42,209 nucleotides of DNA, from NCBI GenBank assembly GCA_947168935.1, contig CAMVNV010000017.1:1-42209 (forward strand). The letters run 5' to 3'. Shown piece by piece: positions 34,156 through 35,872 of the stretch; position 1 is the stretch's first letter; each line of letters begins with the position of its first letter. Origin of the DNA: an uncultured Butyrivibrio sp. (GTDB lineage Bacteria; Bacillota; Clostridia; Lachnospirales; Lachnospiraceae). The translations under genes were made by a program, and so were the position numbers. The notes under the pieces were generated by a model that saw only the letters and a program-made list of their open reading frames with translations, did no database searches and was not told the origin of the DNA.

Positions 34156-35091
34156 TTACTCCATCCACATATCAGATACGTAATACATTAAAGCTATACA
34201 TGTATATACGCTGTAGAATATACCGTTATTATCAACGCCCTGCTTTATGATCTTTCTTGCTTCTTCCTTAGTTAAGATCTCAAAACCGTCAAAAAATTCA
34301 GAACCTTCTGCCCCATCCTGGGATAACTGACCTGCAATATCAGATTTTATTACTACAGATACAAGCGCGTTGCTTTCATCTGTCATACCTGGAGTACTAA
34401 ATACAAGTGGATTTACAGTCTTGATCACATCCTTATCAGAAAGAGTTATGCCTGTTTCTTCCTTGATCTCTCTGACTGCTGCCTTCTCGCAGGGACTAAG
34501 CTCTTTTCCTCCAAGAGTCTCTTTGCTATCAGCATCGCCTGCATCTATAAGTCCTGCAGGAACACTTAGAAGAAACTGCCCAGTTGGATATCTATATTCT
34601 CTTGACAAAAGAAGTCTAGGCTCATCGTACATTCCGTTGTCTACTATAACAAAACAGCTAACTGCATCAGGGATCATATCTGCAAATTCCTGTGCTGACT
34701 TAGTGCAAACAAGCTTTTCAGGGGATCTCCTGCTGGCATTAAGATAATGCCTTCCCTTCTTATATTCAAAGTCGTAAAGACTTATATATTTAGAAAGATA
34801 AATTCCGCTGATAATATGAAGACTGATATCCGGATTGATCTCTGAAGCATCTTCGAATACCTTTTTGATCTTCTGGATGTATTTTAAGCTGTCACTATCC
34901 TTATCTTCACCCTTTGAGACATCGAGAATGTTAATGTCACACTCTCCCATCTCGGTAAGAGCATCATAAAGAGCATCCAAATTGGTTCCGCAATAATCCG
35001 GAAGATGAAGCTTTTCTTTGAGAAGATCATAGATCTCTTCTTTTTCAAGATCTTCGAGTTCACTTAAATTGATCGTATATACTTTTTCCAT
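34156..35091 (-). CDS. barstar-NUDIX fusion: RNase inhibitor domain plus ADP-ribose pyrophosphatase-like domain
   Basis: 311-aa two-domain protein. Residues 1-95 resemble barstar: LPDYCGTNLDALYDALTEM matches LPEYYGENLDALWDCLTGW of Bacillus barstar, keeping both Asp residues (Asp35 and Asp39 in barstar) that plug the barnase active site. From about residue 130 there is a NUDIX hydrolase of the ADP-ribose pyrophosphatase type: REYRYPTGQFLLSVPAGLID, then an expanded loop, then KAAVREIKEETGITL with the core REUxEExGU of the Nudix box. GAGG lies six bases before the ATG; no signal peptide, so it is cytoplasmic. It follows a barnase-type RNase gene by 109 bp on the same strand, as immunity to toxin. 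What the NUDIX part contributes is unknown. Confidence 0.87.
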   Translation of the reverse strand: MEKVYTINLSELEDLEKEEIYDLLKEKLHLPDYCGTNLDALYDALTEMGECDINILDVSKGEDKDSDSLKYIQKIKKVFEDASEINPDISLHIISGIYLSKYISLYDFEYKKGRHYLNASRRSPEKLVCTKSAQEFADMIPDAVSCFVIVDNGMYDEPRLLLSREYRYPTGQFLLSVPAGLIDAGDADSKETLGGKELSPCEKAAVREIKEETGITLSDKDVIKTVNPLVFSTPGMTDESNALVSVVIKSDIAGQLSQDGAEGSEFFDGFEILTKEEARKIIKQGVDNNGIFYSVYTCIALMYYVSDMWME

Positions 35092-35200
35092 ATATATCCT
35101 CTTTTTAATATCTATGGCTATTTCAAGTCTAAATGCAATCTAAGCTCTTTTCTTAATTCTCTACATACAGTAAAGATATGCGAAAACAGCTGACAGACAC

Positions 35201-35872
35201 TTATTCTGTGAAAACCTCGCCATACTCAATCTCGCCATCAGTTACGATAATCTCTGTAAATGATTCATAATGATCCTCAGTATAATAGTACTGTCCGTCA
35301 TCAGAAAAAACAAGCCTGCAAGCGCCTCTTGAGTTTTTGCCGTTGGTGTCTATATCGCACTCAGTATAGTTATTGTCAGGAAGAATCCCTTCACGATTAC
35401 CAAACTTATCGCCGCCTATTGCTGCGCCCTCTTTGTAATCTTCAACAGATCCACCTTCCCATCCAAGAGCCTTGGCTTCTGACTTAGTAATGAAATTTGA
35501 AGGAAGCTTATCGTAAGTTTCAAGATATAAGACAACGCTCTCGACATCGTAGTAGTAGCCATCTTCGTCAAGAATGTCCAAGTCACCAGCCGAAGTGACA
35601 TTTTCATCATCACCTGTCTTATCTGCATTGCCTTCAGCTTTTGAATCATCAACAGATGAACCTTCAGTTGATACTCCTTCGTGTGTAGAACTATCATCTG
35701 ATGAAGCACCATCACTACTAAGTTCCACCAGCCCGGAATCTGACACTTCCTGCAAAACTATACTCTTACTAAGCTCCGCATTATCCTGATCATTCTTCTT
35801 AAACAGTTTACATCCTGTAAGCATCAACACTGATATCAGTACTAATGCAACTATTTTTCTTCCCTTTTTCAT
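35201..35872 (-). CDS. barnase-family guanyl ribonuclease, lipoprotein form
   Basis: 223-aa secreted RNase. The start MKKGRKIVALVLIS is set by AAGGA eight bases upstream. The signal peptide ends in lipobox Leu-Thr-Gly-Cys (Cys21). Residues 25-105 are a Ser/Asp/Glu-rich linker. The rest is a barnase domain: YLETYDKLPSNFITKSEAKA matches YLQTYHKLPDNYITKSEAQA and retains Lys27; AIGGDKFGNREGILP matches SIGGDIFSNREGKLP. The catalytic Glu73 equivalent is in YTECDID, the Arg in ACRLVFS, and the His102 equivalent in EDHYESFTEI. All catalytic residues are present, so activity is expected. Unlike Bacillus barnase it is predicted to be membrane-anchored. The barstar-NUDIX gene is immediately downstream. 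Confidence 0.9.
   Translation of the reverse strand: MKKGRKIVALVLISVLMLTGCKLFKKNDQDNAELSKSIVLQEVSDSGLVELSSDGASSDDSSTHEGVSTEGSSVDDSKAEGNADKTGDDENVTSAGDLDILDEDGYYYDVESVVLYLETYDKLPSNFITKSEAKALGWEGGSVEDYKEGAAIGGDKFGNREGILPDNNYTECDIDTNGKNSRGACRLVFSDDGQYYYTEDHYESFTEIIVTDGEIEYGEVFTE

What the first reader, a model, noticed from the sequence alone, without database searches (positions are those of the whole stretch)
34156..35872. Barnase made as a lipoprotein beside a barstar-NUDIX fusion
Seen: the upstream gene has all barnase catalytic residues (Lys27, Glu73, Arg and His102 equivalents) behind a lipobox and acidic linker. The next gene has a barstar domain with both barnase-plugging Asp residues fused to an ADP-ribose pyrophosphatase-like NUDIX domain. 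Known: barnase-barstar is a secreted RNase with a cytoplasmic inhibitor. Inference: a cell-surface RNase toxin or RNA scavenger whose inhibitor is coupled to nucleotide metabolism. The NUDIX part might sense or clear ADP-ribose or RNase products, so the pair may link RNase immunity to nucleotide stress. I know of no described barstar-NUDIX system.
Basis: partly seen in the sequence, partly recalled or inferred. Interest (0 to 1): 0.78.

Follow-up and report, generated by a model that had tools for sequence, protein, structure and literature searches.

The report
Barstar fused to a NUDIX enzyme
A gut bacterium makes an RNA-cutting enzyme with a membrane-anchor signal, and the antidote to it is welded to an unrelated nucleotide-clearing enzyme; in related genera the same antidote is welded to other proteins, so the weld is real but probably not a dedicated RNA-stress circuit.

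Summary
On the minus strand lie a lipoprotein barnase (35872..35201) and, 109 bases on, a 311-residue protein with a barstar domain fused to an ADP-ribose-pyrophosphatase-like NUDIX domain (35091..34156). Key residues are kept, both halves show purifying selection, and no in-frame start codon would let the NUDIX part be made alone. The fusion is in 3 of 79 genomes of the genus, as one clade with shared synteny; 42 others match only over the NUDIX part. Lipoprotein barnase followed by barstar is the family's ordinary pair: barnase directly precedes 67 of 89 barstars in a 299-genome family sample. New here: in 5 of those 67 the barstar runs in frame into a long C-terminal domain, each different (NUDIX, GNAT, TrpB-like, weakly DAPG-hydrolase-like, one unassigned). 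The partner looks interchangeable. Best reading: an exported RNase with cytosolic immunity, whose inhibitor gene fused with whichever gene lay close downstream. A dedicated link between RNase immunity and ADP-ribose metabolism is not supported. All functions are inferred from sequence.

The parts
35201..35872 (-). barnase-like lipoprotein, 223 aa
   Evidence: PF00545 E 4.8e-18; PDB barnase E 6.8e-22
35810..35872 (-). signal peptide with lipobox LTGC (residues 1-21)
   Evidence: sequence; Cys21 invariant in 9 aligned barnases; motif scan
35570..35794 (-). acidic, serine-rich linker (residues 27-101)
   Evidence: 20 D/E, 3 K/R, 15 S in 75 residues
35249..35542 (-). barnase catalytic domain (residues 111-208)
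   Evidence: alignment to PDB barnase
34156..35091 (-). barstar-NUDIX fusion gene, 311 aa, preceded by an AGAGGA ribosome-binding-like site
34807..35091 (-). barstar domain (residues 1-95), predicted strand-helix-helix-strand-helix-strand
   Evidence: PF01337; alignment with solo barstars; model
34699..34806 (-). junction (residues 96-131), low confidence in the model; no start codon in frame
34159..34671 (-). NUDIX domain proper (residues 141-311), ADP-ribose/ADP-sugar pyrophosphatase-like
   Evidence: PF00293; NUDT5 profile match E 1e-8; Foldseek NUDT5 E 5.9e-10
34447..34554 (-). Nudix box with insert (residues 180-215)

Best explanation
It is an ordinary lipoprotein barnase/barstar pair whose inhibitor has been fused to an enzyme. 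The RNase is exported, lipid-anchored and shown outside the cell on an acidic linker (inferred from the lipobox), where it cuts RNA of competitors or for feeding (role unknown). Barstar stays in the cytosol and blocks any RNase not yet exported (inferred from intact interface residues). In one lineage of this genus (probably Butyrivibrio) the barstar gene became joined in frame to a NUDIX gene that is free-standing in most relatives that have it; barstar stayed complete and the NUDIX lost only about its first dozen residues. Both halves are kept by selection (shown). The NUDIX half most likely still hydrolyses ADP-ribose-like substrates as a housekeeping activity (inferred). The join is one of several between barnase-linked barstars and close downstream genes; the partner's chemistry is not what was selected.
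For: Domains and residues. Junction: solo barstars end and solo NUDIX proteins begin around residues 90-100. No in-frame start codon near the NUDIX native start in 3 of 3 fusions. Three fusions form one clade, support 100/99, with the same order sbcD-sbcC-barnase-fusion-nitroreductase. dN/dS (NG86) 0.06-0.22 for barstar and 0.06-0.09 for NUDIX. The pair is standard: barstar hit beside barnase in 29 of 30 genus barnase loci; 67 of 89 in the family sample. Other joins: 5 of 67 barnase-linked barstars have an in-frame C-terminal extension of 120 aa or more, no two alike. Among the 62 others, 20 have a same-strand frame starting -35 to +31 bases from the barstar stop.
Against: Long C-terminal frames are commoner on barstar than on two control families (5 of 67 against 0 of 150 and 1 of 150 listed frames), which hints at selection for joining rather than accident. 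The NUDIX branch below the fusion is long (1.18 changes per site), so its role may have changed. In the order and phylum samples (82 and 29 barstar places, overlapping the family sample) the only C-terminal enzyme fusions were the NUDIX ones, so the pattern may be confined to this family. No activity was tested.
Confidence: 0.65

Rival explanations
1. Selected entanglement. Joining barstar to a useful enzyme is favoured because neither can then be lost alone: stop or frameshift mutations early in the gene remove both immunity and enzyme, and production of the two is fixed one to one.
For: Excess of long C-terminal frames over controls; different partners in five genera; overlap of barstar by 35 bases with a 183-aa frame in five genera, one of them identified as YgjP-like; synthetic precedents appear in a search listing (titles and abstract openings only).
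Against: 62 of 67 linked barstars are unfused. In two of the five cases an ATG with a GAGG upstream remains at the junction (L049, L120), so the second protein may still be made alone. Tight gene packing explains opportunity without selection.
Confidence: 0.2
2. One reading: the NUDIX half senses or clears ADP-ribose or RNase products, so RNase immunity is tied to nucleotide stress.
For: The NUDIX half resembles NUDT5-type ADP-ribose pyrophosphatases and its metal-site motif REIKEETG is invariant.
Against: No barnase beside the NUDIX in 31 solo loci read as DNA; fusion in 3 of 79 genus genomes; other barstars have unrelated partners. Barnase products are not NUDIX substrates of the ADP-ribose type (general knowledge).
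Confidence: 0.08
3. The NUDIX half is a scaffold: NUDT5-like enzymes are dimers (general knowledge), so the fusion presents two barstars, or stabilises barstar, and catalysis is secondary.
For: NUDT5-like fold; long NUDIX branch and fusion-specific insert after the first part of the Nudix box.
Against: Low dN/dS (0.06-0.09) and intact REIKEETG argue that catalysis is kept. The model is of one chain, and the junction region, which would carry dimer contacts, has pLDDT under 50.
Confidence: 0.15

Closest known systems
Barnase-barstar of Bacillus amyloliquefaciens
   Same: RNase domain and inhibitor domain with the key residues; RNase gene first, exported enzyme, inhibitor without a signal peptide
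   Different: RNase is a lipoprotein behind an acidic linker; its domain is acidic (net charge -11 in the window; median -6 in 94 related domains), whereas Bacillus barnase is basic (recalled); inhibitor fused to NUDIX
Simple barnase-barstar gene pairs (toxin-immunity order) discussed in PMC3482391 (passages seen)
   Same: Two-gene toxin-then-immunity order; Imm-barstar specific to barnase-like toxins
   Different: None of the 12 passages shown describes barstar-enzyme fusions or lipoprotein barnase
NUDT5 / bacterial ADP-ribose pyrophosphatases
   Same: Fold and sequence profile; REIKEETG and a PGxTDE-like motif
   Different: First Glu of the Nudix box is Asp; insert in the box in the fusions; about a dozen N-terminal residues replaced by barstar
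Type II toxin-antitoxin systems
   Same: A toxic RNase neutralised by the product of the neighbouring gene
   Different: The RNase carries an export signal and is not an intracellular effector of its own cell

Membership tests
Barnase (PF00545) | Profile match over curated cutoff | tested here: met
   65.9 bits against 24
Barnase (PF00545) | Catalytic Lys27, Glu73, Arg83, Arg87, His102 | tested here: met
   alignment; numbering recalled
Barnase (PF00545) | RNase activity | not testable with these tools
   needs an assay
Barstar (PF01337) | Profile match over curated cutoff | tested here: met
   44.3 bits against 23.4
Barstar (PF01337) | Asp35 and Asp39 in the binding helix | tested here: met
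   NLDALYD kept in 3 of 3 fusions
Barstar (PF01337) | Inhibits the neighbouring barnase | not testable with these tools
   complex not modelled (only single chains can be predicted); needs binding assay
NUDIX hydrolase (PF00293) | Profile match over curated cutoff | tested here: met
   34.8 bits against 21.1
NUDIX hydrolase (PF00293) | Canonical Nudix box Gx5Ex7REUxEExGU (recalled) | tested here: inconclusive
   REIKEETGI kept; first Glu is Asp186 and spacing lengthened by an insert
ADP-ribose pyrophosphatase (NUDT5-like) | Fold and profile similarity | tested here: met
   profile E 1e-8; Foldseek E 5.9e-10, TM 0.64 by target
ADP-ribose pyrophosphatase (NUDT5-like) | Curated equivalog model over cutoff | tested here: not met
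   best NCBIfam model NudE, 24.4 bits against 169
ADP-ribose pyrophosphatase (NUDT5-like) | Substrate | not testable with these tools
   needs assay
Lipoprotein | Positively charged, hydrophobic signal ending in lipobox Cys | tested here: met
   MKKGRKIVALVLISVLMLTGC; lipidation itself not tested
Type II toxin-antitoxin system | Both products cytosolic | tested here: not met
   toxin has a lipobox signal
Dedicated barnase / barstar-NUDIX system | Architecture conserved beside barnase across lineages | tested here: not met
   3 of 79 genus genomes; only the window's own genome among 89 barstar places in 299 family genomes

The most novel reading that the evidence does not exclude
In Lachnospiraceae, secreted-barnase immunity is repeatedly and adaptively entangled with cytosolic genes, by in-frame fusion (NUDIX, GNAT, TrpB-like and others) or by overlap. 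The fused enzyme is thereby locked to an indispensable antidote: a natural form of the gene entanglement that synthetic biologists use to stabilise genes.
Probability: 0.2. Interest if true: 0.65.

Novelty: new variant of a known kind. Interest (0 to 1): 0.42.

Why it matters
Barnase-barstar is a textbook pair, normally pictured as a free enzyme and a free small inhibitor. Here the inhibitor tolerates, and may profit from, being the front half of unrelated enzymes, and the RNase is lipid-anchored and acidic. If fusion is selected, this is a natural example of an immunity gene used to lock a neighbouring gene in place, which can be tested by loss rates on trees. If not, it shows how freely barstar can be fused, of use in protein engineering.

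Tried and rejected
Intermediate form: a match in G362 covering query residues 34-311 with one stop looked like barstar-stop-NUDIX; reading the locus showed a NUDIX alone. Rejected.

Empty site: the nitroreductase downstream of the fusion was searched in the 79 genus genomes (10 matches). The 7 without the fusion show no barnase, barstar or sbcC hit in the flanks held, so the history of the site stays open.

Defence system: PADLOC has no match at E 0.001 for the fusion or the barnase; its matches to sbcC and sbcD are to related ATPases and nucleases.

Alignment A2 (82 sequences) put barstars on NUDIX columns and was dropped; the 17-sequence A3 was used for the model. Foldseek's 50 listed matches are all NUDIX-type enzymes as titled, none a barstar; the barstar fold rests on Pfam, alignment and predicted topology. 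The barnase-barstar complex was not modelled.

Intrinsic terminators and promoters: 6 promoter-like and 1 terminator-like sites, not more than in shuffles; no operon claim is made.

Controls: ParE and PhdYeFM lists are cut at the best 150 matches, whereas the barstar list is complete, and the extension side in the one long PhdYeFM frame (219 aa) was not read. P-values (0.0025 against ParE alone; 0.0009 against both pooled) are therefore rough.

In the downstream scan, at least one of the 20 frames (L043) looks like a chance frame.

Full report
What is there. Two genes on the minus strand, barnase 35872..35201 and the fusion 35091..34156, 109 bases apart. Upstream on the same strand are sbcC and sbcD, downstream a nitroreductase. 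The barnase has a lipobox signal, an acidic linker and a PF00545 domain (E 4.8e-18) alignable to PDB barnase with its catalytic residues. The fusion has barstar (residues 4-84) and NUDIX (141-278), both above Pfam's cutoffs. The window's genome holds one barnase and a second, unlinked barstar.

Is it one protein? Solo barstars end and solo NUDIX proteins begin in the same stretch of the alignment. In the window's gene the only start-like codons in frame up to about residue 125 are at residues 1, 38 and 48; the solo NUDIX start would fall near residue 84. In the other two fusions, none but the equivalent of residue 48 (G042) or none at all (G358) occurs in the stretch scanned. The model has confident barstar and NUDIX parts (mean pLDDT 79.2, pTM 0.58) and a poorly defined junction, residues 96-131. 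Barstar topology is as expected; Foldseek finds NUDT5 for the NUDIX part (E 5.9e-10), as does the profile search (E 1e-8).

How widespread? All 79 held genomes of the genus were searched. 45 match at E 1e-20 or better: 3 over the full length (window; G042 86%; G358 80%) and 42 essentially over the NUDIX part only. The named-genome scan returned 20 relatives, matching from residue 74 or later, so no further fusion; the tool says near relatives of the window may be left out there. The three fusions are one clade (100/99), outside the main clade of 31 solo sequences, on a long branch of 1.18; their nearest solo relatives are weakly placed. Order sbcD-sbcC-barnase-fusion-nitroreductase is shared by the three. 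No second close copy of the NUDIX turned up in the three genomes, so the fused copy seems to be the only one.

Selection. NG86 dN/dS between the three: barstar 0.18/0.829, 0.146/2.361 and 0.246/1.664; NUDIX 0.057/0.957, 0.139/1.582 and 0.148/1.935. dS above 1 is near saturation, so the ratios are rough, but all are well below 1. The YN00 method failed in most comparisons.

The pair itself is ordinary. Barnase is in 43 of 61 genus genomes sampled; of the 30 loci returned, 29 have a barstar hit beside it (the exception L090 has its barstar about 2 kb off). In a family sample of 299 genomes (about one per genus) there are 89 barstar places in 82 genomes. Using a barnase profile built here, 67 of 89 have barnase within 600 bases upstream on the same strand. 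A lipobox-like motif was found in 68 of 97 distinct barnase frames; 25 more have some other hydrophobic stretch, several of them with a lipobox that the pattern missed, and 4 have none or are cut.

The wider pattern. Of the 89 barstars, 7 run in frame into 120 or more further residues; 5 of these are among the 67 barnase-linked ones: G000 NUDIX; G331 GNAT acetyltransferase (PF13420 E 9.2e-35); G218 TrpB-like enzyme (NF009057 E 3.7e-204); G289 weakly DAPG-hydrolase-like (E 0.00095, under cutoff); G141 unassigned. The two unlinked ones are both esterase-like, and their barstar Asp pair is altered. In G331 and G141 no start codon with an upstream purine motif was seen near the junction; in G289 and G218 an ATG with GAGG upstream remains, so those may also make the second protein alone. 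Outside the family, the order sample (74 of 392 genomes, 82 places) and the phylum sample (20 of 398 genomes, 29 places), which overlap the family sample, show no other C-terminal enzyme fusion; their other long frames have the extra sequence mainly in front of barstar.

Is 5 of 67 more than expected? In the same 299 genomes, the 150 best ParE toxins include no frame of 190 aa or more (longest 184), and the 150 best PhdYeFM antitoxins include one (219 aa). Fisher P is 0.0025 against ParE alone, 0.011 against 1 of 150, and 0.0009 against both pooled. These lists are truncated and not matched for gene spacing, so I read this as a hint. Opportunity is plentiful: of the 62 unfused linked barstars, 20 are followed by a same-strand frame starting -35 to +31 bases from the barstar stop. 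The ten downstream proteins scanned include YgjP-like and M29 peptidases, RecJ, Sua5, diacylglycerol kinase and an ABC ATPase.

How it most likely works. Export of the RNase, lipid anchoring and cytosolic protection by barstar follow from the lipobox and from established barnase-barstar biology (inference). Whether the RNase attacks rivals or scavenges RNA cannot be told here. The NUDIX half probably keeps an ADP-ribose or ADP-sugar hydrolase activity (inference from fold and motif). Since partners differ from genus to genus, the chemistry of the partner is unlikely to be the point. The join is either a tolerated accident of tight packing (favoured) or a way of locking genes together (novel reading).

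Literature. 'barstar' with 'NUDIX' returned two papers, unrelated by title and abstract opening; 'barstar, fusion, Lachnospiraceae' and 'barnase, barstar, Butyrivibrio' returned none; 'barnase, lipoprotein, barstar, Firmicutes' returned only PMC3482391. Of that paper I saw 12 passages: it ties Imm-barstar to barnase-like toxins and calls simple barnase-barstar pairs a possible incipient toxin-immunity order. Searches were seen as listings only. The library lacks most subscription journals.

Noticed in passing
window 35249-35542 (-) and 94 related barnase domains: Barnase domains here are acidic: median net charge -6, only 8 of 94 with pI over 7, while barstars are acidic too (median -6.5 in 56). 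The textbook picture of a basic enzyme meeting an acidic inhibitor (recalled) does not hold by net charge.
   Followed up: partly
L048, L054, L142, L145, L146: In five genera a 183-aa frame, YgjP-like metallopeptidase in the one scanned (L048), overlaps the end of the barnase-linked barstar gene by 35 bases.
   Followed up: partly
L098:4595-7702 (+): A relative of the NUDIX domain is fused in frame to about 800 further residues that look GGDEF/EAL-like by eye.
   Followed up: no
L128 (G609) and L122 (G132): Barstar-like domains at the C-terminus of a helicase-like 846-aa frame and of a pyridoxal-kinase-like 400-aa frame (by eye), with no barnase hit in the stretches held.
   Followed up: no
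L119 and L121: Barstar domains with an altered Asp pair fused to xylanase/feruloyl-esterase-like domains, without barnase in the stretch held.
   Followed up: partly
L003:1153-1767 (+), G000 contig C193: A second barstar protein of the window's genome, 205 aa with an unassigned N-terminal part of about 115 residues and no barnase in the 2.5 kb held.
   Followed up: no
L183-L186: Four 252-295-aa frames in one other family of the phylum carry a weak C-terminal barstar match behind about 170 residues of unassigned sequence.
   Followed up: no
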